This document shows positions 1,123 to 60,039 of a stretch of DNA of 64,000 bases, one piece after another. Under the pieces are notes generated by a model. That model had not been told where the DNA came from, made no database searches, and worked only from the letters and a program-made list of their open reading frames with translations. Origin of the DNA: Saxidomus purpurata (lineage: Eukaryota > Mollusca > Bivalvia > Venerida > Veneridae); assembly GCA_022818135.1 (NCBI GenBank), contig JAFMSR010000008.1, forward strand, positions 6,719,987-6,783,986. The letters run 5' to 3'. The number at the start of each line of letters is the position of its first letter. The first letter of the stretch is position 1. The translations under genes were made by a program, and so were the position numbers.

Positions 1123-4100
1123 ATGGCAACGTCCGGATCAAAAAAAAGACATTCCTCTATGTCCGACGAAGGATTTGAAATTATTGAAATTGATGAAGCA
1201 CTACTAAATATAAAAGTGAGAAACACAGTCTGAGAGTAGTTTAAATGTATAAGAGAGATACACACAGAGAGAGAGGGGGGCTATATCGTAGAAAATATGG
1301 ACTGTACTGTACAAACTGTTTTATACGTATTAGTTTGTAATGGTTGCAAATAATTTTATATCGGCCAAACAGGTGATAAGCTTCGTAATAGAAGGACAGT
1401 GCATGTTCAACAAATAAGAGACCCGTTAACAGGACAATTGCCTAAATGGTCATTTAGATAATTGTTCAAAAAACGACCCTAAATATTCAATATTTCCCTT
1501 TTACAAATTTCATAGTAATGATGTTTCAGCTAGGTTATCTAAAGAACGCTATTTCATTGACATTTTTAAGCCTAAATTAAACAACTATATATATGAAAAA
1601 TGTTAAACGATATGCCGGAATAAGTAAATTATAAAAAAAATGAAAATAATGACACTATATGAGTTTCCTATTTGTATTTGCCAACCGGCAAATATAGCAT
1701 ACACTATAAAATAAATTACTTAGCAACGTTACGTCAAAGTTGTGTACGCAAAAATGATCACGTCATGAGGCACTATTCCCCGAAATCTAAAATTACTAAT
1801 TTGAAACTCGTCTAAGCGTTGGTTATATGGTTTATCCGGTTGTGCAGCGTCATGTATGACCACCGACGGGCCGTCTAGGTGACGATTTTTTGTTCTTATC
1901 CGGCATTTTCTATAGTAAAGATGATAATTATTGCGTCAGGTCAGACAGGAGTATATTAATTAAACAATGATCGACGCACAGCAATGCGATATGATATCGC
2001 GACATTTTCTTTCGAAAATATCGTGCGTCATATGTTGAGTGTCGTATCACATTTTTCGCGCGTCGCTACGCGCTGTCGTGAGTCTCGCTGAGCTACAATG
2101 CAGAATCGACACGGCGTCTGTGCGTCGCTATCGCGTTGTCGAGCGTTATGCAACGGTTATTTTTCCTCTTCATCATTCTATAATAAATACAGGAATTTTG
2201 CACATTTCCTGTTACTTTCACAACAAAATTAAAGCAATCAGCTGTCCTTATTTTATGGTTTTCGATGATTTACCGAAATCTAACGGCGGTTTATTTCCCG
2301 TTAAAAGTGGAAATTATCAAATCTGTTACACGGATTAACGTTAAAAAGTATACCACGCGTACTGAATGCCGAAACCATATGACAATGAAGTAGTTATAAT
2401 GACGTCATCTTTGCGATGCTTTCTGGTGACGTTTCCCGAGATTTTCGACATTTTAGTGAAATAAACTCAACAAATGTTTGAGACATAAAATAAACAGAAC
2501 AGTTGTTCGTATCGTTGTGATATCACGATAAATTCACCCATGAACACCAAAATTAGTTATTTTCACTCGTGGCTGCGTCATAATAACGTGATATTACACC
2601 GAAACAAACAATTATCCTCTATTTATTTCTCGTCTTCATCATTATCACAGTCAAAGAAAAGTTACATAGTCAACAATGATTGTTTGCTATTACTCCATGC
2701 TCAAAGCCACTAAATATTTTTTTAGCGAACAAACTGTCATGTCTGCTGGGGCGAAGTAATCTTTGAACCCAACCATCATGTAGTCCTGAAAAACACATTT
2801 AATTAACTATTTAACAAAAAAACAACAACACAGCAGCAATAAATACGGTTGATAATGATCCAGTTCAGCTTTGAACAGCATTAAAATGATGACATCAAAG
2901 TTTCATAGATTGAACTAGTTTCTAGTGTACAACGACCCGGAAGTACTTGTTGAACGGCGTGTCACCTTATGCAGAGGCGTCGCACGACAATGCAACACAA
3001 CATCGCGACAATGTCGTTTAAATTGTCGTCCTTCGTAGCACGTGCTCCACATTGTTGTGTGTCACGATGAGCTAAAATGCAGGACGCGTTTGTGCGTCCG
3101 TCCGCCCGGACTGTATCACCCCCATGCAATGATAGATTTTAAATGTGCTTGGCTTGATTGTTCACCATGATGGGGCAGCGTGTAGCATGCAAATTAGAGA
3201 TTAAAGGTAAAAATTAACACATGATACCTTATCTGGCATGTCGTAGCGCATTTGGCGGGCTTGACATGTTGCCAGTCGTTACGATATAGTTTTTTCCCTT
3301 CTTTCTTAGCTCACATTGCACTTTGTGCCAGGACGAGCTTTTATGATAGATGATTGTCCGTCGTCCGTCCGTCTGTACGTCGTCCGACAACATCTTTTCT
3401 GAAACCACTGGGCCAATATTAATGAAACTTGGCACGGATGTTCCTTGCATAAAGTTCTACTAATATTGTTCAAAGAATTCAATTCCGTGCAGAACTCTGA
3501 TTGCTATGGCAACATATAAGAAATTCTGTGAAACCACAAGGCTTACAGCTTAGATATTTAGCAGGTAGTATTGCCTAGTAGACCACTATACACACTGTTC
3601 AAATTATGACCCCCTGAAACTGCCCGGGATGCCACTTGATTTTACATAGGCTTAAATAGGAAAAACTTTTAAAATCTTCTTCTCTGAAACAACAAGGCAT
3701 ACATCTTTGATAATCGGCAAGTGGCATTGCCTAGAAGACCTCTACCACAATTGTTCAACTCATGACCCACGGGTCAAAACTGACCCCGCCCAGAATTTTA
3801 CATAGGCTTATATAGGAAAAACTTTTAAAGTGTTCCTCTCCAAAACCACAAGGCCTAGACTTAAGATATTTAGTTTACATTATTGTCTAGTAGACCTTTA
3901 CCAAATATGTTTAAATCATGCCTCTGTTGTTAATATTGGCCCCTCCCGGAGGGTCACTTGTTTTACATAGACATATATAGAAGCTTTCATAAATCTTTTT
4001 CTCCAAAACCACAATCATTGTCTAAAACTTATATATTTAGTGTTACCGGTATATGTTGTCTAGTAGATCTCTTCAAAATTTACCCTGCACGGAGGTTCAC

Positions 4101-7100
4101 TTGGTATAGAAAAATCTTCTTCTCTATAGCCGCAAGGCCTAAATCTCAAATGTTTGGTAAGTAACATTGTCTAATAGTCCTATACCAAAATAGACCACGC
4201 CCGGGGTTCCTTCATTTTTCTTTATAGATATAAGAGAACCCTAGCTTCCAATGAGTTCTTATAACTACGACCAGTGACTTTACATAGCAACTACTGACTC
4301 CCTTTAGCAACAAGGTAAGTGCACACGTATTTAGGTGAGAGATACAGGGCCATTATGGCTGTCTAGCTTTTTTTTATTTTTTTTACGTATTTTATATCTC
4401 GTGTCCATAATGATCGTTATCTCGGATAGAGGACATTGAGAGGAAGTGCTTAACTCTAGCTTGTCCTATTTTTGAATTATCTCTCATTATTGAATTTAAT
4501 TGTCTGGGCATGTCTTACATGGCTCTTGTTATATCTTGTGGCCATGAAATAACTTTATCTTTTCTAAAACAAATTTACTACATTTCGTGGCCACGAGAGA
4601 ATTTATATAAAAAATACATGTCCCATCTGTGCTTCCGTATGTTACAGTCCACAATTGTTTTAAATTATGTGGACTGCGTTTTAAGCAAAATCAACTGAAA
4701 TAATTTATATTGTTGTTCTTTTATTTCCCCGTCGCTTTAATATAATTTAATATCTATCGACTAATCTTGAATATACTGTATTTAAAATACATATAAATCG
4801 TGTTGTCATAACATCATTTTTAACAGATATATTGTAGTAAGCGTTAGATTTTTTAACAAAACTGATACAAGTGACAAAAAAGTCTTCTCAAAACATGTAC
4901 ATGTATGTAACAATACTGTATTGAAATAGACCTCAGAACATTATTTGTTCACGTAATAGGTTGTGCCGACTTTTGATAAAGATGAAAACAAACAACTCAG
5001 AAGTGAAAATCAAGAACTTCGGAGAATTAATAAGAAATTGAAGAATCAAAAACAACAAACAGAATCAGAGTGTAGAACTGAAATATACAAACTGCAGCAA
5101 ACTATCAGCAGACAACAGAAAGAAATAGATGACCTAAAAAAATCCCGGCTGGATGCTAAGCGTGGTGACTTTGACGATGCAATCAAGTTGAAATTAGAGT
5201 CTTATGACACAATCGTTCTTCAGCTTAAAGAAACACAAGACAAACTAAGGGAAACAGAGACTGAACTAGATGCTACTAAAACACGGTTAGTAATTTCTTA
5301 TGTAAATATTTCATAACAGGCTGAAAATAGTCAACGGACCTTGATGCCCAACTACTATTTATGACTATTTATTACAACCTAACATATATAGTACTAGTAT
5401 TATTACCAAGGAATACTTCCATTTCAGACTAAGTAAGTCCATGGGAGACAAGCTTACAGACAACAATCCCAACATTGCCGACTTAAGCGACAATAACCGA
5501 CCTACAAAGCTGGCTGAGAAGTTCCAAGAACTTTACGATAATCAATGGACCGATGCGTTTGAAATTGTTGATACAAAATGCAAACAGGAAGATAGGGAAT
5601 ATGAAGAAAAGAAAACAACTGCAAAATTAATCACGATATTGATGGTACATTTGTATTTGTTTCATTTACAATATCATATATATGTTATGAATACTGAATT
5701 CCGATTGCTCTGAAGTGATCACACATCGGGTTGTCAAAAGTATGTATGGACATGAAAAAATGATAAGAAATCCTGCTCGGATTTCACAATGTCATGTTTT
5801 TCATATTTTCAAATATTTTATTTACAATTTTGAATGAGGAATACGACACAATTATTTATGAATCATGAAGTAAAGCCAAGATACGTTAATTGAGCTTCCA
5901 AATGACGCCATTCAATTGTGTACTTATGCAACGTAGATGCGCATGATTTTCGTGGCGACGAAGCTGTCTTTAATTATTCTAGTATTTAAATCAGTGAAAT
6001 GAATTATGATTAATAAGTAATCGTAACGCTGCAAAAGTCAGCATTTATATCTAATACTTATTTTTGTTCTTACAGGAAACGTTTATATATTGTGAAGAAC
6101 ATGCGAATCTCCAAATTAAAGCTATGCAGGAGGCAGTTGTTGCACCGATAAGTTTGGTAAAAAATTAAAACTATTTGATACGAAGGTACATCGAAATGTC
6201 CCTGGCTTAACGTTTTCTGAATTTTAATTAATTAGATTTTTAAAGATAACCACCCTTGATTTCAATGCATTTGTTCCATTGATGCTCAAACTTAATTTTG
6301 CCACCTTGAGAGAAGTTTTCTTCCTGATCCATCGAAAGACCTCAACAGCAGCAAAAACGTCATTTCAATAAAAATGTCTCCCGCGCAGCTACTTTTTGAG
6401 CTTAGAAAAGAGGTAAAATTCCTAGGGTGCTAGATTATGTGAGTATTTGGTACGTGGCTGGAGTTCAAAGCAAAACTCCTTAGCTGTAGCTGCAGCTACT
6501 GCAGTTTGTGAGTTATGTGCAGGCGAATTATATTAAAGTAAATAATACTTGCTCTGAGTATTAACGATATACCATAGCTTTAAAAGTGTCGTCATGGTAC
6601 AAAACAATGATACTAATAGTATTCATATGAAGATATGACCAGTAAACGATAACTGATAAATAAAATATCAGTAGACTATTTTGTAAAGTCCTTTACTTTT
6701 TAGCCGATTATTTCTTAGTACAACTTAAGTGACAATGTTACAGTATAATGCGGCTTTTCTCGTGAAATTATGACCATATTTTATACGTGTAAACGCAAAT
6801 TCCCTTCTTTTCATAGTGATTTCGACAAAAATGCGATATAATTTTGTTTTCAGAAAACCAGAAACATACATATCCCTACGAATGTACACAAACAAATAAA
6901 AGATTGCCGAAAAAATGTTGCAGTCTTTTCCGGGAAGCAACTGTTTCAGGTAGTCCTGACTGCTAATGATAAAATAAGCGAAATGAAAAGATAGTATTAC
7001 CTTTTAAATTACAAAACTAAATCTTACAAAACTTGTTACAAGAATATTGGTTATTTTTCTAAATATTTGCCGCCTGTTGTCACACTTTTATGCTTTTAAA

Positions 7101-8014
7101 CGAACCGTTTTATAAGATTATGATACTTTTATCAAAGCAACGAATGTTTTGACTGAACACTTTTATATTTAGAAGCATTGGTTGTTAAATTGCAAGGGCT
7201 TTTACATTTTACAGAAATATCAGGACAAACTTCAAAGCTCAATTTCCTCAAAAGCGATGATGGCTGAAAGTATCCCAGGCTTCTTCGAAGAGTGTTTCAA
7301 CATATGCTGGCTCATGACAGTAAGTATTAACTACAAATAAAATTGTTGAAACATCCACATTAATTCATCAATATACATGTATCAGGACACTTTTATAAGA
7401 TTGAAATGTACTTTAAACCACCGCCTATATTACAATATAGGAGGCGTCAACAACAATCGTAATGATTTTTTTTGTAAAGCGTTTAATGAATTCAAGTTCC
7501 GTTTACTAGTTTGTAAAATGGCACCGATAGGCCCAATTCTAGCATCACCCCAATTATTTAATGTGGACTTCCTGTAGATGTTTTCTTTTGAACCTAGTGT
7601 TAGATAACACGAGAATCAATGAACATTGTGCTTATTTGCTGTTGTCTGACAGTTAAGCAAATTTGGCACTTTGCAATATTCTTAATTAAAATATTTTAAT
7701 TTGGCTTCTCAGTAACATCCATAGTAGATGCTACTTCTCATGCTTACTGGGAGAAAAATGCTATAATTGTTTATATGTTATAGGTGCAGGATCCTCCACT
7801 GGCATTTGGACCAAACATAAATAGTGGAGAATTGTTTAATACAGATATATACAAGGCATACACAAAAAGCGGAAGTAGAATTGATTTTGTTGTGTGGCCT
7901 GCCTTGTTACTACACAAGAATGGCCCGGTCCTAACAAAAGGTATCGCTCAAGGACTTGTTGAGCAAAGACGTGAAAGATCTGGCTCGGCGCATCGTCGTT
8001 CTGACAAGCTGTAG
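1123..8014 (+). CDS. Gene A: MIEAP (SPATA18-like) domain protein, short-tail type, 7 coding exons
   Basis: Hand-assembled exons: 1123-1215, 4960-5285, 5428-5644, 6076-6156, 6854-6949, 7215-7319, 7784-8014. All have AG/GT borders and matching phases, giving 382 aa with no internal stop. Residues 1-31 are a short N-terminus. Residues 32-139 are a Lys/Glu/Gln-rich coiled coil. Residues 141-382 form the conserved domain, with NRPTKLAEKFQELYDNQWTD in exon 3, ICWLM ending exon 6 and DPPLAFGP...FVVWPALLLH...LTKGIAQG in exon 7. Vertebrate SPATA18 has the same order (acidic/Trp segment, DPPL, HVWPAL, KGEA); there it acts in degrading damaged mitochondrial contents. The start is the first ATG after the acceptor at 1096, so a 5' untranslated exon must lie upstream. 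Exon 1 lacks the helical segment present in gene B. A candidate poly(A) signal at 8775-8780 is conserved downstream of gene B. Domain assignment is strong; exact function is inferred. Confidence 0.78.
1330..1606 (+). mobile_element. Degenerate Penelope-like GIY-YIG endonuclease fragment
   Basis: Conceptual reading gives FYIGQTGDKLRNRRTVHVQQ followed by IRDP, and after frame breaks a segment ending RYFIDIFKPKLN-like. This is the layout of GIY-YIG endonuclease domains in Penelope-like retroelements. Frameshifts and stops make it dead. It sits in intron 1 of gene A. Confidence 0.6.
1975..3115. repeat. CpG-rich, palindrome-rich repeat patches in gene A intron 1
   Basis: Two GC/CpG-rich patches (about 1975-2160 and 2930-3110) stand out from the AT-rich surroundings and share wording (GAGCTA.AATGCAG, GTCTGTGCGTC / GTTTGTGCGTC). 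Between them, 2498-2660 matches 34497-34625 (TGAACACCAAAA..., then CGAAACAAACAATTATCCTCT), so this is a dispersed family. The 99-codon open frame at 2039-2338 is not conserved and is probably incidental. Confidence 0.5.
3330..4375 (+). repeat. Dispersed bivalve-type repeat with ~157-bp internal tandem units
   Basis: Opens with a GTCCGTCCGTCTGT-type run and a GAAACTTGGCACGGATGTTCC segment. About five degenerate units follow, each holding an ACCACAAGGC-like box near 3532, 3688, 3844, 4008 and 4130. It ends near an ATACAGGGCCATTATGGC segment. A second copy with the same order lies at about 50500-51700 in pseudogene D. Noncoding. Confidence 0.7.
4960..5285 (+). CDS. Gene A exon 2: coiled-coil exon
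   Basis: Begins after a ...taatag acceptor in phase 0 and ends ACACG before gttagt, leaving two bases of an Arg codon completed by the A at 5428. It encodes 108 codons dominated by Lys, Glu, Gln and Asn with regularly spaced Leu/Ile, as expected of a coiled coil. Its last stretch (QLKETQDKLRETETELDATK) is nearly identical to the end of gene B exon 2. The middle is more divergent. Confidence 0.8.
7784..8014 (+). CDS. Gene A last exon: C-terminal end of the MIEAP-like domain
   Basis: Follows a ttatag acceptor and reads 76 codons to TAG. It carries the diagnostic DPPL, an FNTDIYKAY segment, IDFVVWPALLLH and LTKGIAQG, then a short basic tail ending RRSDKL. The match to gene B's last exon is near-complete, with substitutions concentrated at NS/DR, L/W and in the basic tail. 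Confidence 0.85.
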   Translation: MQDPPLAFGPNINSGELFNTDIYKAYTKSGSRIDFVVWPALLLHKNGPVLTKGIAQGLVEQRRERSGSAHRRSDKL

Positions 8015-13861: not shown

Positions 13862-13980
13862 TCTGGAGTTGCCTTTGATACCGATGTATATACATGTAAA
13901 GCATATACAAACACTGGAAAGACAATTATAGTGTTTGTGCTAAGGTATCGAGTGTTAAAGTAACGATCAAGGTGAAGGAA
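13862..13980 (+). pseudogene. Fossil last exon of a C/D-type MIEAP gene
   Basis: TCTGGAGTT, then TTGATACCGATGTATA, AAGCATATAC and GGAAAGACAATTATAGTGTTTGTG follow gene C's last exon (33359 onward) in order. An internal deletion of about 40 bases then jumps to a match of AAAGGTATCGCTCAAGGTGAAGGA. The frame is lost and no other exons are visible nearby. It is a relic of a lost copy between A and B. Confidence 0.7.
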
Positions 13981-15824: not shown

Positions 15825-18800
15825 ATGGCAACATCTGAAGCAACTTCATATGACAATGATTTTGAACATCTTGAAAACCTTAAACACCCAGAACCTAGCA
15901 CTCAGAAGCTGATAAATTTGATAGTAACTAAACTCCCCGAGCTTGCAAAGGACGCTCAAAAAGAACTTAATGAAGCACTAAAAGCAATTACAGTAAGTTT
16001 GACTTATTGATTTTTCCCTTTAGATTTTGAACACTGCACTTGTAATATATTCAGACTATTCCTAGATACGTTTTATGTGATATCAAAAAAAGAAACTGAA
16101 AATATTCGTTATTGCAAATCACAAGTGTCCTAATAAAGAGTTGTCTGTAAATTAATTGTCATGATCTTCATCTATATGAAATATAAATAGAATACTTTAC
16201 TTCTCTTATATTGTCAGAGTAAGAACGATTGTGTTTGCATATTAATACACTCGGAAGTTTGATACAGAGATGTTGATATTTTATTAACGTTACAGACAGC
16301 GGCCAATTTTGATGGAATCGAAAACAAACAACTTAGAAGTGAAAACAAACAACTTCTTAAAAGATTAGAGGAGCTTAAAGAAAAAAAGAGCGAAATTGAA
16401 TCAAAGTGCCGAGATGAATTATACAATCTACAGCGAAAAATAAACGAACAAGAAAAAGAAATATGTAAACTCAAAACAAATCGGCCCGAAGAAAGAACCT
16501 ATGCTAAACTTGGCGATATTGAGGATGCGGTAAAGTGGAAGTTAGAGTTCTACGACACCGTTGCACTTAAGCTTCGACAAACACAAGACAAACTAAGAGA
16601 AACAGAGGCTGAACCAAATGCTTCTAAAACACGGTCAGCTATTCCCTCCGTAAATATTTCATAGCAAGCTGAAAATATTATATACCTAACAATGGAGAAA
16701 TAAGTAGGCCATATGCTATGAAAATAAAGATACATTCATGGTCATAAACGTGTATGTATATGTAAGAAATAACAATTTAATGCGTACTCGAAATGTTGCA
16801 TACTTTTTAAAGTATAAAACATGTTGAGCGGGATTTTGTCGAATTTGCTGACCAACCAATATTTGCACTCAACGGATTTTTATGCCCAACGAATATTTAT
16901 GACTCAACAACATAAGCTATTATTACCAATGAATACATTCCATTTCAGACTAAGTAAGTCCATGGGAGACGACAAGCTTACAGACAACAATTCCAGCATT
17001 GCTGACTTAAGTGACAATAACCGACCTACAAAGCTGGCTGAGAAGTTTCAAGAACTTTACGATAACCAATGGACAGATGCATTTGAAATTGTTTATACAA
17101 AATGCAAACAGGAAGACAGTGAACATGAAGAAAAGAGAACAACTGCTAAGTTAATCAATATATTGATGGTAGGTTGTTTTTACCTAACAATATCGTATAT
17201 AAATATGTATGTTTTTTTATTTTGTTAACTTACACTTCCAAATAACGATATTCAGTTGTGTACTTAGACAGCGTAAATGCCCCTGATTTTCGTGGCGATA
17301 AAGAAGTCTTTACATCTTTTAGTATTTAAATCAGTGAAATAAATTAAGATTTATAAGTAATCGTAACGCTGGAAAAGTCAGCATTTATATCTTGTACTTA
17401 TTTTGTTTTACAGGAAACGTTTAAATATTGTGAAGAACATGCGAGTCTCCAAATTAAAGCTATGCAGGAGGCAGTTGTTGCAACGATAAATTTGGTAAAA
17501 AATTAAAACTGTTAGATACGAAGGTACATCAAAACGTCCATGGCTTAACATAATAAACACAGTGGTACTCACGTGTAACTTTTCAAACTATTCGTGCATC
17601 GTTCGTGTATCGTGCATTCCGTTTGCATTCATCATTTGTTTATCGTTCGTGCATTCTTCGTGCAACATACATATCGTCTTTTGTGTAACGCATCGGTCAT
17701 TCCGAGTGATGAAGGACAATATAAAAGTGGTCTGAGATAGGTTGAACAACCAGTGGTGTAAGTCTAAGCCTAAACGTGCATTGTTCATATATTACTCAAA
17801 GATAAGATAAAATTGTGTAAGAATCACTGATAAAATAGAACGAATGACTCTTTCAATTTACCAAACTATCTTCTGTGAGATATGTTTCTTTTCCTTGTGA
17901 GATATGTAAACTGTGCCTGTATATTCTGGTATGTTATCCAGACTCAATATGTTTTATGTTCAACATTGTTCAGACAGATTTATCAACACACATAGACAGA
18001 TTGTCTTTGTTTAAAAGAAACAGTTTTAGCCGACAGTTGAAAATTCTGTGACAAGTACATAGACTTCTTAAAACATTTAGTCATTTCTTGGGCACTTTCA
18101 TATGATACCTGTAAAATCTGTGAAGGTCACACAGGTGTTTAAATTTTACACCTTCGATTCCAATGTCTTGCACCTTTTCAATATGACAGCTTTGAATGTT
18201 TCGACTGCCTTAAATTGGCAGACGTGAAATATTTGATTTGTTGGTGTGACTATGTAATTAGATTTTTTTATAATAAGTATATACGTGTGTCGGTATTCAA
18301 ATACTAATTACTCTTATGATCTGTTTGGTTTTGCTTTAAATTAAAAAATCGAGGTGTATAAATATGATAGTATGTGTAAAAGATAACAATGTTTACATGT
18401 CAAAAAGTGCAACCGTCGCCTGATTTTCATGTAGTTTCTCTACATAAACGCAACAACCACCTAAGTGTCATGTGCCAATTTAAAAGGCATTCATTCCTCT
18501 TAACATCAATATCAATGACTTTTCACCTTTCTGTAAACATTCTTAAAAACACTGGCAAAATCAACCTCTACACATCTGTAGTCGAGAAATCCGCCAATAT
18601 ATACCGGCCCCCGATCCGTATTCCGGATTTTTGCGGAAATGCTTAAACTGAAGAATTCCAAAATTCGCTGATACAGCAGTGCAGTTTTATTCAAATTGAC
18701 AAAGAAATGCACGAACTGATAATTACAAAGATCAATGTGTAGAGATATTGGTAGACAGGTTACGATTTACGCAAAAGTCCGGTATACGAGAAACTACATG

Positions 18801-20849
18801 CAAATCAGGCGATGGTTTCACTATTTGACATGTACAGTGTAAGTATTGTATTTTTACACATGTACTCGTACACCTCGAATTTCATTTTTTTTAAAACGGC
18901 ATTTGCGTGTTGTATGGTTATTCAGTTGATGATGGTATATGTCAGTCATGTAAAACTTGGACATTGGGCCATTTTGTTATGAGCGAGAGATTTTGAGACC
19001 AAGCTGACACGCTCACCTGGGACAGATCCCCGGGTGTCTGTGTTTTCAGGTCTATTTATAAGTTTGTTTTTCAGTGTACAAAATGACCCAGTTCATCGAA
19101 TAATCGTTTTTCGTTTCATTCATTGGGAATCTTATGTTATATCGTTCTTAATTGCTCATCATCATCGTGCAATCCGTTTGCGCGAATCATTCGTTGAAAT
19201 AGTGTGCAACGATGCCTTGATGTATCTTTGTCGATTGAATTGTTTCAAAGTAAAACCATATACTAAACATTTTTGACGAACGGACATTTAATCGTGCAGA
19301 CAATTCATAAACCAATACAGAAGTGATATTACAGTATGTGTATGTTCTTACTTATGACAAGTAAACGGTAACAGATGAATACTATATCATTTTTGAAAGC
19401 TACAATATTTGAACAGTATTCTCTTGTGTGAAATCCTTACGTTTTTTTAATAGCTGTTGACGTCTTGGTAAATCTATATTCTCAATACATGTAAAACAGT
19501 ATGGCAGAAATTATTTTCGTCTTACGATGAAAAGTTTTGTACATGTGACATACTGATTATTGCAAAAATGCGAAATTTTGTTTTCAGAGAAACAGAAACA
19601 CATATATACCTACATATGTACACAAACAAATAAAGGATTGCCGAAGAAATATTGCAGACTTTTCCGGGAAGCAGTTGTTTCAGGTTGTTCTTACTGCTAA
19701 TGATAAAACAAGTGAAAACAGATTTTAACTAAAAAACTTAATCTGCTGTAACACAGTTTCTGTGCTTACAAAACTGCCTAGAAATATATTGATTAATTTT
19801 TCTCACTCTCGTGCTCTCAAACTCCTGTATAAGCTTATGATACATTCTATCATAGCAACTAAAGTTTGATTGAAAAACGTTGTCTTTAAAGAGCATTGGT
19901 TGTTTAACGGCATTTTAAATTTTACAGAAATATCAGGAAAATCTTCAAAGCTCAAGTTCTTCAAGAGCAGTTATTGCTAAAAGTATACCCGGCTTCTTAG
20001 AGGAGTGTTTCAACATATGCTGGCTCATGACGGTTAGTAGTAACTACAATTAAAATTCAAAAGAAACAATTTACATAACAAATTTAATGAATACACAAAT
20101 AAACAAAACATTAACATTGTACATGTACATTTTTGTATCAGGACAGATTTGTGATATTGACAGGATGTAACGAAAATCCTTAAAAATTACTGCAAGAAGA
20201 CGTCTCAACAAACATTAACAATAAACATAAACATTTCTTTGCAAAACATTTATTGAATTTAGGTACCGTTTACGAGTTCATAGAAATGCCACCAATAGTC
20301 CCGATTCTAGCATCACCCCAATTATTTAATGTGGAAATCTCTGTAGATGTTTTCTTTTGAAACCGGGGTTAGGCAACCGCACGAAAATAAATGGTAATTG
20401 TGCTTATTTGCTGCAATCTGACCATAGCCAACAGTAAAGCAAATTTAGCAATTTGCAACACTCAACTTTACCGAAATGCTGATACCATTGATAAACAGTT
20501 AGATCTTTTTAAGTTGGCTCCTCAGTAACATCCATAGTAGAGATTTTTACTATTGTTGTTAAAAATCTGTGTGCTGAGAGAAAAGGGCAATACAATGTAT
20601 ATTGTTTAAATATTATAGGTGCATGATCCTCCACTGGCATTTGGACCGAACATAGATAGAGGAGAATGGTTTAATACAGATATGTACAAGGCATACACAA
20701 AAAGTGGAAGTAGAATTGACTTTGTTGTGTGGCCTGCCTTGTTACTACACAAGAATGGTCCGGTCCTAACAAAAGGTATCGCTCAAGGACTTGTTGACAA
20801 AAGACGTAAAAGATCTGGCTCCGCGCATCGTCGTTCTGACAAGTTGTAG
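15825..20849 (+). CDS. Gene B: MIEAP (SPATA18-like) domain protein, short-tail type, 7 coding exons
   Basis: Exons: 15825-15992, 16296-16633, 16949-17168, 17414-17494, 19588-19683, 19928-20032, 20619-20849. Borders are AG/GT with phases 0,2,0,0,0,0, giving 412 aa without a stop. Residues 1-56 include a helical segment (LINLIVTKLPELAKDAQKEL). Residues 57-168 are coiled coil. Residues 170-412 form the MIEAP-like domain, with a Trp-containing exon 3, an ICWLM exon-6 end and DPPL...FVVWPALLLH...KGIAQ in exon 7. The start follows the acceptor at 15810, so the 5' leader is on an upstream exon. Introns 2-6 and the 3' flank align with gene A, whereas intron 1 and the 5' flank do not. Intron 4 is about 1.4 kb longer than in A and holds a 528-bp inverted-repeat element. 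Mitochondrial role is inferred from family only. Confidence 0.82.
16296..16633 (+). CDS. Gene B exon 2: coiled-coil exon
   Basis: Starts after gttacag in phase 0 and ends ACACG before gtcagc. It encodes 112 codons rich in Lys/Glu with heptad-like Leu/Ile spacing. The opening ENKQLRSENKQL and the closing RQTQDKLRETEAE are shared with gene A; the centre has changed. A minus-strand open frame over it is a shadow. Confidence 0.85.
18350..18877. mobile_element. 528-bp inverted-repeat element (MITE-like) in gene B intron 4
   Basis: The first ~95 bases (CGAGGTGTA ... ACATGTCAAAAAGTG ... CGCCTGATTTTCATGTAGTTTCTC) reappear inverted at the right end (GAGAAACTACATGCAAATCAGGCG ... TACACCTCG). The element is missing from the matching intron of gene A, so it entered after the A/B duplication. 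No transposase. The target duplication is unclear. Confidence 0.65.
20619..20849 (+). CDS. Gene B last exon: C-terminal end of the MIEAP-like domain
   Basis: Follows a tattatag acceptor; 76 codons to TAG. DPPLAFGPNIDRGEWFNTD, IDFVVWPALLLHKNGP and LTKGIAQG are present, with the same RRSDKL terminus as gene A. The tail differs from A mainly by acidic/basic swaps (VDKRRKR versus VEQRRER). Confidence 0.88.
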   Translation: MHDPPLAFGPNIDRGEWFNTDMYKAYTKSGSRIDFVVWPALLLHKNGPVLTKGIAQGLVDKRRKRSGSAHRRSDKL

Positions 20850-23348: not shown

Positions 23349-23359
23349 GTTACAGTTAA

Positions 23360-30600: not shown

Positions 30601-33600
30601 ACTTCCTAGTTGCTCAATATTGTACGACACTAACTTTACTATGAGCAGACAAAATCAAGCTCCTTCGTGTCAAGGTCATGCGTAGAGGCCACAGGAATTT
30701 TTCGTTTCCTAAATAAACTTTCTTAACCATATGATGGATTTATAAAAAAAATCATACATAAATGTTCGCAGTGAACATACAATGTGCCCCGTGCAATACC
30801 AATCTCTCTGACAACAAGGTCAGTATCACATTTTAGATGTTAAACATTTGTAGAAGGCTACATCAGCCTAATTACTATATGTTTACTATTTGTCACAACT
30901 GGTATACCACTCTTTAATGTAATTTTTGTGTCATTCAAAGTGCAATACATTTGTATCTTCACATGGTCCTTAATTTAAGACAAATTTATTTCAAGTCTGT
31001 GCGGTTTGAATTTGCATAAAATCAACAAAATTAGAAGTAATCAAATATTATCAATTTTACTGATATCTAGGAAAGCAGTAGGATACATGTACATGTGCCA
31101 GCTGGCGTGAAGAAGCAGTTAAAAGATTGCAGGAAGAGTATGGCTGAACATTCAGGAAAGCAAATGTATCAGGTATCGACAACCTTAGCCTTTCATTCAC
31201 ATCACTGAACGTTTCATAATATCAAAAGAAAATCTTCTTCGACTTGACACCAAAAAAAGTGTTAAACAAAAACCTAGAAATAACACGTCTGTCTAACTTT
31301 GAGACATATTGCCATAAAGTTTAAAGCTTGGCAAAGGAACACAGAATAACATCAGCTGACACGCATGTATATCACACGTTATATCTCTCAAACAAGAGTT
31401 CTTTAAAAACTGAACCTATATATTTGTATCATATAAAACTTATTATGAAACAAGAGTCTATAGATTTATCTTACGTTTTTTTTTTTTTTAAAACGAAAAA
31501 TGACAGGATGTCTTTAAATGTTTATATCTTGCAATTATGTTCTGCGGGTATGAAGATCTTTACATTTTAGAAAGGTCATTTTATTGTCTAAGCAAATTAT
31601 TGTGTTTATGACGGTAGGCCACTAAATGCGTTTAAATGTAACATGTATTTGACATGCTTCTGACATACTTATTATTTCAAATATTTCTGTTTCTCGGCTT
31701 TCCTAAAGTATTAAAAGCGTTATCAATATCTATTTCAGAGGTACCACAACACGTTGGAACGTTCGTGGTCACAGACGACAGCAAGAGATGCACTAAAGGT
31801 TCCAAAATTCCTAGAAGCATGTGTCAAGATCTGCTGGTTAATGGCTGTGAGTATTTTTACAAAATGTGCAGCAAAAGGTCTTGATGGGTCAGATTCTTGC
31901 AAAGCTCAATACGAGTTACATACATTTACTTCAAAAGAAAAGAAACAATACATTATAATGTGAAAATGTAAAGATTTCCTAAAATTTGAAAGCTATAATT
32001 TTAAAAGCTTAACTGTAAGTTGGCTTCAAAAAGACCAAAGGATAAGTTAAAGCTTGCTCTAACAAAATAGAAAAAGAAACTTTAAAATGAAAATTTGATA
32101 TACATGTTCTTAAAACTATCTAGGTCCAAAGTAATACATTGATGTCATCTGTGAAACATTTGAATGTTTTTAGAGGAATACTAATTCGGTTCCCATTTAT
32201 CCCAACTTTTCAACACTTTTATTTGCGTTAACTGCTATATTGTATATTTTGGAGGGGAAATATTTTCTTTATGACATGTATTCTAATGATCTTTTTATCT
32301 GTGACATACAAAGTACACGTCTTTGAAAAGATAAGAGAATTTGATTAGTGCTTGTTACCGATATTTCATTTCTCCAGAATTATGTTTTAGTGCATCAATG
32401 TACCAAAGTGTGATCCAATCATGCCATCATTTTAACAGTAATTGGTCTTTCAGCGTAAGTTCAGCGTAATAATTTACTAGCCTAACTAGATTTGTTTATC
32501 AAATGCAACAATATCAATAGTATTTCGAAGCAAATTTTCACCACGAAAACACAAAGTACGAATTGTCGGACACAAGATAGACGTTGTATCAGCCATCACA
32601 CAAAGAACTTTAGTGTAAAAGTTTGTTATTTTTTGCTCGCAGCATAATCGTCTATATGATCAATTAATAGTATATACTAGTATACATACGGAATATTGTA
32701 ACAGTCGGTTGATCTGCGGCGTCGTATCTTTTGAGTTGGCTGTGTAGTTCCGGATCACACGAGATGCGGAGCCTCGAGTGTGATCCTGATCTATGCAGCT
32801 AACGAGAAAGATGCACACGCAGATCAACAGACTGTTATAATATACCTTATATCATATACCTTTTATCGAATATCATGATAGATTTTATATAAACGTAAAT
32901 TTGTGTCAATAATGGCGTAAAATCAACATAAGGCGCTATTTCGTGTCATGTTTTATATGACGTCAATGACGTCACTTGTGTCTTCCGTGTATAAACAAAC
33001 AACAGTTACTGTAATAAAAAATAAATGCAAAATGTAAATTATCGTTCTGGTTTATTTTATGCGAAAAAGACGTTGTATTCATTTGTCTTCAAATGTGACA
33101 TAAAAACAAATGTGACAATAAAACTAAACTTATTTTACTGCAGCAATGTTGATCTATTTGTCAACTTTTAGCGTAGGAATACAATATGAATATGCATTTT
33201 TGTACAACTTACACGGTGGACAGATAAGGTACGGCATAATTCATCTGATACGGAAAATTTGATATATTGCTGGTGTCGAACTGTCAGATAATCAAATTAT
33301 CACTTTAAATCATTTGTAGGTTCAGGACCCACCAGTTGTATTTGGACCGTTTTCACAATCTGGTGTTGACCTTGATACCGATGTATACAAAGCATATACG
33401 ATGAATGGAAAGAAAATAGTGTTTGTGGTATGGCCTGCTCTTCACTTACATAAGGATGGTCCATTGATGTGTAAAGGTATCGCTCAAGGTGAAGGATCCC
33501 AACGACCTAAATCTGCCCCACCATATAGGACAGAAAAGCCAAACTCTGATGCAAGACCTTCAAGTACAAGTACATTTAAACCTGTAGCAGTATCAGAGAA

Positions 33601-34243
33601 CGATCATTACTTAGCTGCAAACAAAAGCCACGCTTTCAATGAAAAAGATTATCATAAAAGAAGAGGATCATATGAATCAGATTACATAAATGAAGAATCA
33701 AATTATCCTCGATATGAATCAAGTACAAGTACTCGAGGTTACAAATCAGAAAAAGAAGGTTATGGAAAAAGTGAACATGATGATGAATCTGTCACTGGAA
33801 GTTATGTATCGAGCTTAAGTGGACGTGAACCTGGCTTAAGCAGCTACGAACTAGACTCATTAGGTTACAGTTCTCGCACAAGTGGCTACAAAACAGACAC
33901 CTTACGTTATGAATCAGGCGCTCGAGGTTACGATCCAGGCACTCGTAATTACCTTTTGAGCACGAATCGTTATAAAGGTGACACACGATATAACGAATCA
34001 ACAGCTGATTTTTTCGAATCGGGCACTAAAGATTTCGGTACAAGTACAAGCAAATATTCATCAGACGTGAGACACTATGAAACATCACGCACACCGAATC
34101 TAGTTACAGCCAATTACGATTCTCTGGCGAGATATTCTCGAGCACGTCCCTCGAGTGCTTCATACCAGCAAACGGTAGCATCACGTTCCTATAAAGCAAA
34201 GAACATCAAACGTGACCCCCCTAAAAGCGTTTGGCGATATTGA
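24677..34243 (+). CDS. Gene C: MIEAP (SPATA18-like) domain protein with long Tyr/Ser/Gly repeat tail
   Basis: Exons: 24677-24853, 28581-28996, 29377-29569, 30083-30169, 31071-31172, 31739-31846, 33320-34243. All AG/GT, phases 0,2,0,0,0,0; 668 aa with no stop. Residues 1-59: N-terminal segment with LLHLLTSDIQGLAKDI helix. Residues 60-197: long coiled coil. Residues 199 to about 420: MIEAP-like domain, with YDNEWTDAYE in exon 3, ICWLM ending exon 6, then DPP..FGP and FVVWPALHLHKDGP..CKGIAQGEG. Residues ~421-668: low-complexity tail of degenerate short repeats, roughly Y-x-S-G-T-x-x-Y. The tail is absent from A and B and from vertebrate SPATA18 as I know it. A noncoding leader exon lies at about 24172-24358. 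AATAAA-like signals occur near 34717. Most complete gene of the window. Confidence 0.87.
25293..25510 (+). mobile_element. tRNA-derived SINE in gene C intron 1
   Basis: 25293-25383 resembles a tRNA with a long variable arm: an A-box-like GGTAAAGTGGTTTGAACCG and a perfect B-box GGTTCGAACCC, closing CTTCCGACCA. A non-tRNA body follows. The acceptor stem does not pair convincingly, so it is a SINE head and not a working tRNA gene. Confidence 0.6.
26926..26998 (-). mobile_element. tRNA-like SINE fragment
   Basis: On the minus strand GTAGGTAAGTGGTTAGCGTG (A-box region) and GGGTTCGAATCAC (B-box) are spaced as in a tRNA, but stems are poor. Intron 1 of gene C (24854-28580) otherwise shows only AT-rich sequence, a 12-base C run at 27609-27620 and short unconserved open frames. 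Confidence 0.55.
28581..28996 (+). CDS. Gene C exon 2: long coiled-coil exon
   Basis: Starts after cattacag, seven bases beyond a TGACGTCA palindrome, and ends AACAAG before gtcatt. It encodes 138 codons, Glu/Lys/Gln-rich (ESENDQLKRENEGLLQQIQE at the start, KKKDDELEDYR at the end). It is about 26 codons longer than in gene B and has little sequence identity with the A/B coil apart from composition. Confidence 0.88.
29755..29990 (+). mobile_element. 5'-truncated tRNA-SINE in gene C intron 3
   Basis: Matches the body of the full SINE at 60712-61035 (opposite strand there): GCTATACACCGGGCATGTAA, GGGGTCTATTC, AAAAGAGCTAGG, GGATTCCCTTGTATCT, GACTTATAAA. It ends in a short AAGG run. The same SINE sits in the same intron of pseudogene D (55018-55270), so it predates the C/D duplication. 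Confidence 0.75.
32692..32842. repeat. Foldback (imperfect palindrome) in gene C intron 6
   Basis: Arms AATATTGTAACAGTCGGTTG...ATCTGCG and its inverted partner CGCAGATCAACAGACTGTTATA enclose a second inverted pair (GGATCACAC / GTGTGATCC) around a GC-rich centre. The whole ~150 bp can fold on itself. Two TGACGTCA octamers lie just downstream (32958-32965, 32967-32974). Confidence 0.6.
33320..34243 (+). CDS. Gene C last exon: domain end plus repeat tail
   Basis: 307 codons to TGA at 34243. About 59 codons finish the conserved domain. The rest begins with a Pro/Ser/Thr stretch (RPSSTSTFKPVAVSEN). Recurring Tyr-Gly/Ser units follow, such as SLGYSSRTSGY, TLRYESGARGY, DPGTRNY and STNRYKGDTRY. The tail is predicted disordered from composition. 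A minus-strand open frame inside is a shadow of the repeat. Confidence 0.87.
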   Translation, partial: VQDPPVVFGPFSQSGVDLDTDVYKAYTMNGKKIVFVVWPALHLHKDGPLMCKGIAQGEGSQRPKSAPPYRTEKPNSDARPSSTSTFKPVAVSENDHYLAANKSHAFNEKDYHKRRGSYESDYINEESNYPRYESSTSTRGYKSEKEGYGKSEHDDESVTGSYVSSLSGREPGLSSYELDSLGYSSRTSGYKTDTLRYESGARGYDPGTRNYLLSTNRYKGDTRYNESTADFFESGTKDFGTSTSKYSSDVRHYETSRTPNLVTANYDSLARYSRARPSSASYQQTVASRSYKAKNIKRDPPKSVWRY

Positions 34244-53835: not shown

Positions 53836-53840
53836 TTTTA

Positions 53841-54375
53841 AAATGATGCACTTCTTCAGCACATACAGGAACTAAAACTGAAGTTTCACCAACGTAAACG
53901 CCAAGCCGTATATGCAAGAGTAGGTCAAGCAATTGAAAAAAACATACGTTTAATGCATTTTGAATAATGGGAAACGATCTTAATGCTTATTTTTGTAACA
54001 TTCAAGAAGTAGAAATCTTTTAATGAATTTTTCTTCATTCCTATATAGGATGTAATTACAGATAGTGACAAAGTCTCTAGTAAAGAAGTGATGAACAGCA
54101 AAAGAAAAATGAGGACTTCTTCAACAGATACGGAACTTGAACAAGAAAGTTTACCAACATACCAATCCAAGAAACGAGCAATAGACCAGAATTGAAAAAC
54201 GAGCTTCAAATGAACAACGGAATCCAGCAGAAGCCGAAAAGAAAATCGATGAACTGAAATTACGAATATAGAACAAGTTCAGTTAAATCAAGATGTATTA
54301 CATCAATCTCAGAAAGAAGGATGTACAATACAAGAGTAATACTAAGTAGTCAAGAACTATAATTGCAAGTTACGA
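53841..54375 (+). pseudogene. Two relics of the gene D coiled-coil exon
   Basis: 53841-53962 (CTTCTTCAGCACATACAGGA, AAGTTTCACCAACG, GTCAAGCAATTGAAAAA) and 54062-54375 (AATGAGGACTTCTTCAACAG, AGTTTACCAACA, CAGCAGAAGCCGAAAAGAAA, TCAGAAAGAAGGA) each align to the first half of gene C exon 2. Both carry indels that break the frame; the second retains an acceptor-like taattacag. The end of the exon and its donor are missing. Confidence 0.75.
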
Positions 54376-55017
54376 TGTCTAAAATATTACCATTGCTGTC
54401 GGCAACTGATTCTTCCTTTCCGACCAGTGCAGATCATGATCAGGATACAGAGCTTTCCAGTCCAAACATTATATGCACTGTTCACTATTTAATTAGTAAA
54501 TTTTCAGACGGCACCCCTTGAACAATAAAAGAGTCATAAAAAGTCAAACATTGATGTATAAAGAAATACAAAAATCGAAGTTATTCAGTAAGTATATCGG
54601 TTAATGAGAGAGTAATTAAACATATGATTGTGTATTTCAGTCTAAGTAAAAAAACGGATGACAAACTAACTGACGAAAACCCAAATTTTGCCGATCTGAG
54701 TGACAAAAACCGCCCGACAAAGCTTGCAGAACAATATCAAGAAATCTACGATAATGAATGGACAGATGCATATGAAACTCTTGACAATGGAATTGAAGAG
54801 AAAACAATTGCTTCTTTGATTAACATTTTACAGGTATGTCAAACACAGTGCACCAATCCAACAGTTTGAAACATATGAACATTGAAATAATAAGTTATAG
54901 TTGCTTTTATTTTAAACTCTGTGGAAAATTGAAATAAAATAGTTAAGTCAAAAAGCAAAGCTCTAATAAATAAATGCATACTTAGAGAATGTATAGGTAA
55001 ATTGTTTAAGTAACTTT

Positions 55018-55270: not shown

Positions 55271-57544
55271 GTCATATAAACAGAATTTTCAAACTCATTA
55301 TTAAATCCATTAATATGGCTCCTAATTTTCATTACTAATATGAGATATCGCAACGTCTTTTTAATATTTAGGAGGCGAGGAAGTTCTGTGACGACGAGGC
55401 AGAGAAACAAATGGAAGAAATCCAAAATGCTCTCACACAAGGATCATCTTTGGTTATGGTATTTTCAAATTTCTGAATTATTAAAACTGAAAGAAAAGTA
55501 GATAAATACATTCAATTAAGATACATCAGAAAGGATTTTAATTCTGTATTTTGCCAATTGTCTTGACAGCGCAGTTTAAAATTCGAACAAAAAAGGACAT
55601 TTTGAATGCATCACTGAAATGTACGTGTCTTTTACTTATAATTTCTGTCTTATTACTAGGACGTTTTTTGCTGAAAAGTAATTGCAAATGAGAATGCTGA
55701 CACTGCAAAGATTCGAGTAATTTGGTAGTAATCTAACTGTTGTAAACATACTTTTATATATATATATCTAACCTTCGTAATGGCAGAGTCTGTCAAATCT
55801 GCAGTTCAGTCCCTTTGTCAGTCAGTTGATCGGTTTATTTTCCTTTCCTTGCGGAAGACTTCTTAGTTGCTCAATAATGTACGACACTTAATTTACTATG
55901 AGCAGACAAAATTAAGCTCCTTTTTATCAATGTCATACGTAGTGGTCAAAGGTATTTTATTTTCCTAAACCATTTGAAGGAATTATAAATAATTGTACAT
56001 AAACGTTCGCAGTGAATATACAATATGCCACGTGCAATACCAATCCCTCTGACAACAAGGTCAGTATCACATTTTAGATGTCAAAGGTTTGTAGAAGGCT
56101 ACATCAGCCTAATTACTACATGTATTACTATTTGTAACAACTGGTATATCACTCTTTAATGTAATTTTTGTGTCATTTTAAGTGCAATACAATTGTATCT
56201 TCACAGGGTCCTTAATTTAAGACAGATTTATTTCAAGTCTGTACGGTTTTGAAGTACATTTGTAGCATAAAGTCAGCAAAACTAGAAGTGATAAAATATT
56301 ATCAATTTTATTGATATCTAGGAAAACAGTAAGATACATGTACATGTACCAACTGGCATGAAGAAGCAGTTACAAGATTGTAGGAAGAGTTTGGCTGAAC
56401 ATTCAGGAAAGCAAATGTATCAGGTATCGACAACCTTAGCCTTTACGAAGGTATTTCACGGATCACTGAACGTTTCAATAATATCAAAAGCTAAAATCCA
56501 AAGTTGAACTTCGGATAAAACGTTTATGATAACCAAAAACGGTTAAACAAAACCCTAGAAATAACACGTCTGTCTAACTCTGAGACTAATTGCCATAAAG
56601 TTTAAAGCTTGAGCAAAGAAACACAGAATAACATCAGCTGACACGCATGTTTATTTCACACGTTATTCTCTCTCTAAAATTAGAAAACCTTCAAGAGTTC
56701 TTTAAAAACTGAACCTATTTCATGCATTTGTATCATATAAAACTTAATATAAAACAAGAGTCTATAGATTTATCTTAGGTTTTTTTATTTTGAAACGAAA
56801 AATGGCAGGATGTCTTTAAATGTTTATATCTTGCAATAATGTTTTGCGGGTATGAAGATCTTCACATTTTAGAAAGGTCATTTTATTGTCTAAGCAAATT
56901 ATTGTGTTCATGACTGGAAGAAATAGACCACTAAATGCGTTTAAATGTAACATGTATTTGACATGCTTCTGACATACTTACTATTTCAAATATTTTTGTT
57001 TCTCGGCTTTCTTAAAGTATTTAAAAGCTTTATCAATATATATTTCAGAGGTACCGCATCACGTTGGAACGTTCAAGGTTACAGACAGCAAGAGATGCAC
57101 AAAGGGTTCCAAAATTCCTAGAAGCATGTGTCAAGATCTGCTGATTAATGGCTGTGAGTATTTTTTCCAAAATATGCAGCAAAAGGTCTTGATGAGTCAG
57201 ATTCTTGCAAAGCTCAATACGAGTAACACATATTTATTTCAAAAGAAAAGAAACAAAACGTTGTAATGTGAAAATGTAAAGATTTCCTAAATCTTGAAAG
57301 CTATAATTTTACAAGCTTAACTGTTAATTGGCTTCCAAAGGCCAAAGGTTAAGGTAAATTTTGCTCTAACGACAGAAAAGAAACTTTAAAAAGGAAAATT
57401 TGATATACATGTTCTTAAAACTATCTAGGTCCAAAGTAATACATTGTTGTCATCTGTGAAACATCATGAATGTTTAAAGGAATACGTATACGGTTCTCAT
57501 TGGTCACAATTGTTCAACGCTTTTGTTTGCTGCACATTTGATTA

Positions 57545-58530
57545 CGAAAGCTAAAAAAAAGCTAAAATCTGCATTTTTCTACTAAAATGACTTCTTAAAT
57601 TTCATAGAAAACAACTGTTGCAATAATATTCTGTTCGGATTAAACTGATCAGTTTCCATCAAGCCATCTACTGCTTTCTTTTCAATCTGCTAAGGGATAT
57701 ACATGTATTCATTATATTTTTTTATAAATCATACTTAACAGTTTATTGTATCATGATATTATGCACAGATACTTGGGGTATGGACTCGCTTGTCCCATGT
57801 TGTACGGAACGTATATAAATACAAGATTTGAAACAACTGAAAACTCCAATCGCATTCATGTAAATAAGGAATAACTAACCGGATTTTCCGATGCAAAACA
57901 ATATTCTGAATAAAATCCCACTCCAAATTGCATCGAATACGGTTGAATTAAGAGAATTTCGAGGAAAAACACTTCTGTTACTTGCGCACAAATCAGATTT
58001 AGTATATACATTAAGTTATAAAAATAGGTTCCCCGCATCGCAGTGTATAAAAGAGCGTGCGCGGGTTACCATTACGTTTACAGCGGGGATTTTTTCTTGT
58101 GGGAATGCTATATATAGCGGTAAATTTTAATGCAGATTTATAAATAAAACGACTGGTTACATTTGTATTGCCTAAAATTTTCGAATCGTTACTATTTTTA
58201 GAAACAGTATAGGTGAGATGTGATAGAGGAAATCGATTTGTTTCAAATCTTGTATTTATATACATTGTCACTATAAACATGTGATCAGTAGGTAAGTAGA
58301 ATAAGGACTTGCATTTGTAATTGGTTAGCTAACACGCAGTTGTAGGATGTATATAAGGTACTGCAGTGAGCAGGGGCGAGGGTCAGGCCTAAGGGGATGA
58401 GGTCAAGACCCCAAGCATCTGTGATATTATGTTAGCGATCCGCTCTATTTAGATGTTGACACTGTTACGAATAGGGGACATTCAAACACACAGGTAGACG
58501 AACCTTTCGAAAGAAGTTAATAAAAAAACT
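57545..58530. mobile_element. ~1-kb insertion in gene D intron 6 containing an inverted-repeat element
   Basis: Gene C intron 6 runs straight from a CAACACTTTTATTTGCGTTA region into GGAGGGGAAATATT (near 32250). D has about 1 kb between the equivalents. Inside, GTATATAAATACAAGATTTG plus AAACAA at 57811 is inverted at 58237-58262, bounding about 450 bp. Short open frames inside have no recognisable product. Confidence 0.55.
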
Positions 58531-59127
58531 GCTGAATTGTGGAGGGGAATATCTTCTTTATGACATGTATTCCAGGAGCTTTTCCTCTGTGAAATACAAA
58601 GTACAAAGTAAAACACGTCTATAAAAAGATAAGAGAATTTGATTAGTGATTGTTACCGACATTTAACTTCACCAGAATTACATTTTCATGCCACAACATA
58701 CCAAAGTTTGATCAAGTCATGTCATAAGTTTGACAGTAAATGGTCTGGGTTCAGCATAATAATTTACAACCTAACTAGATTTGTATATCAAGTGTAACAA
58801 TATCAATAATGTTCCGAAGCATATTTTCATCACGAAAACACATAGTATCAGTTGTCGGACATCGTCGACGATACCGAAAAATTGATTACTACACGTACGT
58901 TGCCCTTGTTGGTGGAGCAATCCACTTAAAATAACCTCAAGTTTGCCTATGTTCTATCAGCTATGTCGAAGTTTGTTATTCGTTGCTCGCAGCATAATCG
59001 TCTATATGATATGTTAATAGTATATATTAGTAGAAAATGTGATATTGGGTCATGTTGTGTTTTATTTCTTAATATTGCTTGTGTCGAACTATCAGATAAC
59101 CAAATTATCACTTTAAATAATTTGTAG

Positions 59128-60039
59128 GTTCAAGACCCACCACTTGTATTTGGACCTTTTTCACAATCTGGTGTTGACTTTGATGCCGATGTATACAAAG
59201 CATATACGAAGAGTAGAAAGAAAATAATGTTTGTCGTATGGCCTGCTCTTCACCTACATACGGATGGTCCACTGATGTGTAAAGGTATCGCTCAAGGTGA
59301 AGGACCCCAACGACCTAAATCTACTCCGCCAGGAAGGAAGACAGAGAAACCGAGCTCTGATACAAGACCTTCAAGTACAAGTACATTTAAACCTGTAGCA
59401 GTATCAGAGAACGATCATTACCTAGCTGCGAACAACAGCTACGCATCCCGTGAAAAATATGAATCATATTCCATGAATGACGAAATATATCACCCTCGAC
59501 ATAAATCTAGCAGTCGAGATCACAAGTCCAGAAATCAAGGTTATGAACGAAGTAGATATGATAATGAACCTGTTACTGAAAGTTATGTATCCAACTTAAG
59601 TGGACGTGAAGCTGGCGTAAGCAGTTATGATCTAGGCTCTTTAGGTTACGGTCGTCACACTAGGGGTCACAAGACGGACACTTATAATTATGAATCGGGC
59701 ACTCTGGATTACAATCCAGGCACTCCAAGTTACCTATCTGGAACATATAGTAATAAGGAATGTGACGAATATGACGAAACAGGAGCTGAACTCTTCGCAT
59801 CAGGTACTAGAGATTTCGATACAAGCACAAGCAACTACTTATTTGACTCTAAAAGCTTTGTACCACGAAGGCAGCATAACATATTACCAACAGAAGATTA
59901 TGATTTTGCCAAGCGAGATCGACTTACACGTCCCTCTAGTACTTCGTACCAACAAAAAGTTGTTACAAAACCATCACCTCAGACATTCACAGTAAAGACC
60001 TTCAGATATGATTCTGCCAGACCTCCTTGGAAGATTTAA
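59128..60039 (+). pseudogene. Gene D last exon, open, with repeat tail
   Basis: 303 codons to TAA. The domain part keeps every landmark of gene C. The tail aligns with gene C's with indels and substitutions (SLGYGRHTRGH, TYNYESGTLDY, NPGTPSYLSGTY). No stop has accumulated over 900 bp although upstream exons are broken. That could mean youth of the pseudogene or use of this exon in some shorter transcript. Confidence 0.8.

What the first reader, a model, noticed from the sequence alone, without database searches (positions are those of the whole stretch)
1123..60039. Tandem array of MIEAP (mitochondria-eating protein) domain genes
Seen: four same-strand copies with the same seven-exon plan and phases, three intact and one broken, plus two relics. 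Known: vertebrates have a single SPATA18 with this C-terminal domain. Inference: a lineage-specific expansion in a mollusc. The constant C-terminal module joined to changing N-termini and tails is what one expects of paralogues acquiring different inputs.
Basis: partly seen in the sequence, partly recalled or inferred. Interest (0 to 1): 0.75.

Follow-up and report, generated by a model that had tools for sequence, protein, structure and literature searches.

The report
Clam MIEAP gene array, known expansion
A clam chromosome carries a row of four related genes for mitochondria-eating (MIEAP) proteins, three that look whole and one broken, which is a fresh local example of a gene-family expansion already published for bivalves.

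Summary
Four same-strand genes (A, B, C, D) share a seven-exon plan and intron phases. Spliced A, B and C match Pfam MIEAP at 69.5, 70.5 and 61 bits (cut-off 27). D has a decayed putative coil exon and one internal stop. One clear relic (13826-13939) and one weak one (53842-53886) were found. Colinear annotated proteins of the clam Mercenaria support the exon chains (A and B with P0084, 54% and 51%; C with P0073, 45%). All four copies fall in a well-supported group of Mya, Ruditapes and Mercenaria proteins (99/99); A-B and C-D are local duplicate pairs. 'Lineage-specific expansion in a mollusc' is right but not new: Regan et al. 2021 (PMC8382680, passages) list a MIEAP orthogroup of 807 members, mean 53.1 in 15 bivalves against 0.6 in 17 others. 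Genome-wide copies could not be counted: the genome tool did not complete. In passing, a MIEAP domain turned up in a bacterium, Endozoicomonas sp. Mp262, although a 2024 paper reports none in bacteria. That is the more surprising lead.

The parts
1123..1215 (+). Copy A, exon 1 (31 aa, start codon; acidic F-E-I-I motif)
   Evidence: ATG to GT donor; only weakly like the N-terminus of P0084 (E 2.4; aligned)
4960..5285 (+). Copy A, exon 2, putative coiled coil
   Evidence: AG/GT, phase 2; 46% to P0084, E 6e-20
5428..5644 (+). Copy A, exon 3: conserved NPNIADLSDxNRPTKLAE motif and start of MIEAP domain
6076..6156 (+). Copy A, exon 4, MIEAP domain
6854..6949 (+). Copy A, exon 5, MIEAP domain
7215..7319 (+). 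Copy A, exon 6, MIEAP domain
7784..8014 (+). Copy A, exon 7, end of MIEAP domain and short tail, stop codon
13826..13939 (+). Relic of a MIEAP last exon with an internal stop
   Evidence: tblastn E 1.5e-5 to copy C; DNA 71-74% to last exons of D and C
15825..15992 (+). Copy B, exon 1 (56 aa, acidic F-E-H-L motif)
   Evidence: 49% to N-terminus of P0084, E 9e-11; GT donor
16296..16633 (+). Copy B, exon 2, putative coiled coil
16949..17168 (+). Copy B, exon 3
17414..17494 (+). Copy B, exon 4
19588..19683 (+). Copy B, exon 5
19928..20032 (+). Copy B, exon 6
20619..20849 (+). Copy B, exon 7, stop codon
24677..24853 (+). Copy C, exon 1 (59 aa)
   Evidence: 40% to N-terminus of P0073, E 3e-7; GT donor
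28581..28996 (+). Copy C, exon 2, putative coiled coil
29377..29569 (+). Copy C, exon 3
30083..30169 (+). Copy C, exon 4
31071..31172 (+). Copy C, exon 5
31739..31846 (+). Copy C, exon 6
33320..34243 (+). Copy C, exon 7: end of MIEAP domain and a 250-aa tail rich in Tyr and Ser by eye, stop codon
   Evidence: tail weakly like P0075 (E 0.006) and aligned with P0073
49316..49510 (+). Copy D, exon 1 (65 aa, open)
   Evidence: 72% DNA to C exon 1; E 0.001 to P0073 N-terminus; GT donor
53842..53886 (+). Possible relic of a coil exon
   Evidence: tblastn E 0.23 to copy C exon 2, weak
54049..54373 (+). Copy D, decayed exon 2 (stops in all frames)
   Evidence: 75.8% DNA to C exon 2
54641..54833 (+). 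Copy D, exon 3
55372..55458 (+). Copy D, exon 4
56322..56423 (+). Copy D, exon 5
57049..57153 (+). Copy D, exon 6, with one internal stop
59128..60039 (+). Copy D, exon 7 and long tail, stop codon

Best explanation
This is a local cluster of MIEAP-family genes in a heterodont clam (nearest database relatives: Mercenaria), one piece of the published bivalve MIEAP expansion. It was built by at least two rounds of duplication: a probably older A/B versus C/D split, then local A-B and C-D duplications, with D now a pseudogene. Each intact protein has a variable first exon, a putative coiled coil and a conserved C-terminal domain, modelled on a relative as four long helices followed by a small beta sheet. 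Most likely mechanism, inferred by analogy with human Mieap: the C-terminal domain binds mitochondrial phospholipid (cardiolipin), the coil self-assembles the protein, and the variable N-terminus and tail choose partners, so that damaged mitochondria are handled or removed; parallel copies let bivalves use this in different tissues or stresses (hypoxia, heat, infection). Shown here: genes, exon plan, family match, kinship, decay of D. Inferred: lipid binding, assembly, partner choice. The confidence below is for the gene-family reading; for the mechanism alone I would say about 0.4.
For: Pfam MIEAP 69.5, 70.5 and 61 bits against cut-off 27. Same exon plan and phases. Colinear Mercenaria proteins. 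Tree of 54 rows: all four copies in a 14-row group at 99/99; A+B 100/100, joined by P0084 at 92/86; C+D 100/100, joined by P0073+P0075 at 88/82. Purifying selection between A and B, dN/dS 0.32 in the MIEAP domain. Published expansion: 807 members, mean 53.1 in 15 bivalves, 0.6 in 17 others (PMC8382680, passages). Human Mieap binds cardiolipin and forms mitochondrial condensates (PMC10845071, abstract and passages). MIEAP Pfam annotation over-represented in mussel gill transcripts (PMC5549309, passages). Domain model pLDDT 92, pTM 0.88 on the relative P0006.
Against: No transcript evidence for the window copies. No functional test of a bivalve MIEAP was seen. The motif NPNIADLSDxNRPTKLAE lies ahead of the Pfam match and, from recall only, is not evident in human SPATA18, so biochemical function may have shifted. 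In the 115-row tree the C/D join with P0073+P0075 is unresolved. The acidic F-E-x-[ILV] motif in A, B and P0084 looks like an LC3-binding motif (pattern recalled), but family-wide enrichment is not convincing: 22 of 137 N-terminal regions against a shuffle mean of 9.4 and maximum of 16, where 5 of the 22 lie in the domain's own WTDAF stretch, three are near-identical proteins, and B itself does not match the pattern used.
Confidence: 0.8

Rival explanations
1. The copies are an immune or host-parasite gene family: MIEAP paralogues diversify because intracellular bacteria target or mimic them.
For: A MIEAP domain sits in the bacterium Endozoicomonas sp. Mp262 (P0055). A-B amino-acid identity is 0.55 in the coil and 0.86 in the domain. 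Pseudogene and relics show copy turnover. Endozoicomonadaceae form intracellular microcolonies in bivalves (PMC12491435, passages). A precedent by title and start of abstract only: an intranuclear parasite of mussels expresses apoptosis inhibitors acquired from its host (PMC11521996, search listing).
Against: No positive selection signal: A-B dN/dS is 0.32-0.49 in the regions measured, and the coil also has higher dS (0.80 against 0.20). No expression data under infection. Only one named bacterial carrier was seen.
Confidence: 0.15
2. The array is mostly drifting redundant copies with little specific function beyond one ancestral gene.
For: D is broken and a clear relic exists. C-D dN/dS is 0.59 overall and 0.48 in the domain.
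Against: A and B keep open frames and purifying selection; A, B and C align with annotated Mercenaria proteins over their exons.
Confidence: 0.1
3. The copies are uncollapsed haplotypes or another assembly artefact.
For: A-B and C-D are similar DNA blocks.
Against: DNA identity is 72-89% between the matching pieces; synonymous divergence in the domain is 0.204 for A-B and 0.125 for C-D; spacing of exons differs between copies.
Confidence: 0.03

Closest known systems
Bivalve MIEAP orthogroup OG24 (Regan et al. 2021, PMC8382680)
   Same: Many MIEAP paralogues in bivalves, few elsewhere; three duplications in the bivalve ancestor conserved across all bivalves in that analysis (passages)
   Different: The passages read give family counts, not a local array with exon plan and pseudogene; the word 'tandem' does not occur in the main text held
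Mya, Mercenaria and Ruditapes MIEAP proteins (e.g. P0001, P0073, P0084)
   Same: Same core motif and domain; P0084 aligns over the exons of A and B, P0073 over those of C
   Different: A lacks the short stretch of exon 1 that B and P0084 share; A and B lack about 80 residues at the end of P0084
Human Mieap/SPATA18 (PMC10845071)
   Same: Coils ahead of a structured C-terminal half (passages); the Pfam model named for it matches the window copies
   Different: Single gene in vertebrates (recalled); R/S-rich disordered segments described for human, whereas the C/D tail is Tyr/Ser-rich by eye; no vertebrate sequence was aligned here

Membership tests
MIEAP family (PF16026) | Pfam MIEAP domain above curated cut-off | tested here: met
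   A 69.5, B 70.5, C 61 bits, cut-off 27, profile 1-193 of 195. Spliced D was not given to Pfam; the session's own clam profile gives it 242.1 bits over positions 2-219 of 220
MIEAP family (PF16026) | Coiled coil ahead of the domain | tested here: inconclusive
   Exon 2 aligns with the region ahead of the domain in relatives; long helices there in the P0001 model. No coiled-coil predictor was run
MIEAP family (PF16026) | Same three-dimensional fold as SPATA18 | tested here: inconclusive
   Only clam relatives P0001 and P0006 were modelled; no solved MIEAP structure by sequence; no clear fold match
MIEAP family (PF16026) | Cardiolipin binding, mitochondrial condensates | not testable with these tools
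   Reported for human Mieap (PMC10845071, abstract)
Bivalve MIEAP expansion | Groups inside the bivalve paralogues | tested here: met
   All four copies lie in a 14-row group of Mya, Ruditapes, Mercenaria and one unnamed protein at 99/99 in the 54-row tree. No non-bivalve animal sequence was in the tree
Bivalve MIEAP expansion | Many copies genome-wide | not tested

The most novel reading that the evidence does not exclude
Bivalve MIEAP paralogues are an arms-race repertoire at the mitochondrion: intracellular Endozoicomonadaceae have captured the domain from bivalve hosts (P0055, perhaps P0085) and use it as a decoy or to steer host mitochondria, and the host array diversifies in response through changed N-termini and tails.
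Probability: 0.1. Interest if true: 0.75.

Novelty: new member of a known kind. Interest (0 to 1): 0.33.

Why it matters
The array gives an exon-level example of how the bivalve MIEAP family grows and decays, with matched pairs (A-B, C-D) and Mercenaria counterparts for testing whether paralogues differ in function. The bacterial MIEAP domain, if confirmed, would contradict a printed statement that the family is absent from bacteria and would tie the bivalve expansion to intracellular bacteria.

Full report
WHAT IS THERE. A self-comparison of the window's open frames showed two pairs of duplicated blocks on the + strand; DNA comparison places them, in pieces, at 4971-10551 with 16307-23357 and at 28568-34056 with 54049-59837. 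Reading these stretches gave exon chains with GT/AG ends at all 19 joined introns and the phase series 2,0,0,0,0 in A, B and C; D has the last four of these introns, in phase 0. Each chain has a separate first coding exon followed by a GT donor, at 1123, 15825, 24677 and 49316.

FAMILY. Spliced A, B and C match Pfam MIEAP at 69.5, 70.5 and 61 bits, cut-off 27, over profile positions 1-193 of 195. Unspliced last exons of C and D do not pass. A strongly conserved stretch of the clam proteins, LTDxNPNIADLSDxNRPTKLAE, begins before the Pfam match.

ARE THE EXON CHAINS REAL? No RNA was available. The best substitute is annotated proteins of Mercenaria. P0084 (505 aa) aligns with A (371 residues, 54%) and B (395, 51%), and P0073 (640 aa) with C (599, 45%), from first exon through the domain and, for C, a weakly similar tail. 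P0084 has about 80 further residues at its end, and A lacks a short stretch of exon 1 that B and P0084 share.

BROKEN COPY AND RELICS. D exons 3 to 7 are open except for one stop in exon 6. Its putative coil exon has stops in all frames. A last-exon relic lies at 13826-13939 (E 1.5e-5) and a weak coil relic at 53842-53886 (E 0.23). C-D: domain dN 0.060, dS 0.125, ratio 0.48; tail ratio 0.66. A-B: domain 0.065/0.204, ratio 0.32; coil 0.303/0.80, ratio 0.38. The coil differs more than the domain at synonymous sites too, so its faster protein change is not by itself a sign of selection for new inputs; uneven divergence or gene conversion of the 3' part is possible.

KINSHIP. The protein search returned 67 proteins; of the 50 with a name, 49 are bivalve and one bacterial, and 17 have none. 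Of 148 sequences that matched the session's own MIEAP profile (144 proteins and the four window copies), 120 had a full domain. A quick tree of 115 rows was made after adding the cut-out P0055 region and leaving out up to seven isoforms by hand, and a careful tree of 54 chosen rows followed. In one search all four copies sit in a 14-row group at 99/99 with Mya, Ruditapes and Mercenaria proteins; A+B and C+D are pairs at 100/100; A+B join P0084 at 92/86 and C+D join P0073+P0075 at 88/82, which are moderate values. In one search the A/B join is 92 and the three subgroups otherwise form an open fork. The likely reading is that the A/B and C/D lineages predate the split from Mercenaria and each was duplicated again here. 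By the contig-length column, 14 of 19 Mya entries share a 93.0 Mb contig and 19 of 32 Mercenaria entries a 97.8 Mb contig (isoforms counted), which suggests, without proving, clusters there too.

WHAT IS KNOWN. Regan et al. 2021 (PMC8382680; passages) list orthogroup OG24, 'Mitochondria-eating protein', with 807 members, mean 53.1 in 15 bivalves and 0.6 in 17 others. Three searches pairing the family name with mollusc, bivalve or gene family expansion put it first. A mussel atlas reports the MIEAP Pfam annotation over-represented in gill (PMC5549309; passages). The present array is a new local instance of a known expansion.

HOW IT MAY WORK. Human Mieap binds cardiolipin and forms mitochondrial condensates; its N-terminal coil region and C-terminal hydrophobic half are both needed for their multi-phase structure (PMC10845071; abstract and passages). 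The domain, modelled on the clam relative P0006 and not on a window copy, is confident (pLDDT 92, pTM 0.88): four long helices followed by a small sheet. No solved relative was found by sequence and no clear fold match. The mechanism is by analogy. An acidic F-E-x-[ILV] motif in the first exons of A and B and in P0084 resembles LC3-binding motifs (recalled pattern); it is a lead only.

BACTERIAL MIEAP. P0055, 464 aa, is a hypothetical protein of Endozoicomonas sp. Mp262 on a 5.16 Mb contig (taxonomy). It passes the Pfam cut-off (40.8 bits) and matches the clam profile in two pieces, 100.5 and 89.1 bits, with profile positions 85-111 missing between them. Apart from itself, no hit of its own search covers more than 52% of it (capped at 7996 candidates), so its flanks look foreign to the family. 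PMC10845071 states, from OrthoDB v10, that Mieap orthologues were not found in bacteria. P0085, unnamed and on a 4.1 kb contig, also has an N-terminus without relatives. GTDB scans found none, so carriage is rare or the species is not held.

VERDICT. Observation confirmed; interpretation right in kind but already published; mechanism inferred. The bacterial domain is the item most worth a second look.

Noticed in passing
P0055 (Endozoicomonas sp. Mp262), residues 174-355: A bacterial protein carries a MIEAP domain with the bivalve core motif, between flanks unlike the clam proteins; likely host-to-bacterium transfer, contrary to a printed statement that bacteria lack the family.
   Followed up: partly
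P0085 (unnamed ENA protein, 4.1 kb contig): 577-aa protein with a C-terminal MIEAP domain and a 340-residue N-terminus without relatives in the search made; possibly a second bacterial carrier.
   Followed up: partly
window 1165-1185 and 15852-15872; P0084 residues 34-40: Acidic F-E-x-[ILV] motif shared by the first exons of A, B and Mercenaria P0084, resembling LC3-binding motifs.
   Followed up: partly
window 38224-39082, minus strand: Tc1/mariner-like transposase in two overlapping frames: DDE_3 33.8 bits and HTH_Tnp_Tc3_2 39.8 bits, both above cut-off.
   Followed up: no
window 35270-36277: About 1 kb element bounded by roughly 298-bp inverted repeats, 91.6% identical.
   Followed up: no
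window 45027-45868: Tandem array with a unit near 147 bp, roughly 5-6 units by length; a 154-aa open frame on its minus strand has no Pfam match.
   Followed up: no
window 51488-51539: Short telomere-like AGGGTT array inside the window.
   Followed up: no
window 29807-29934, 55069-55262, 60701-60897: Dispersed repeat in the same intron of C and D and inverted just downstream of D, 86-87% identical.
   Followed up: no
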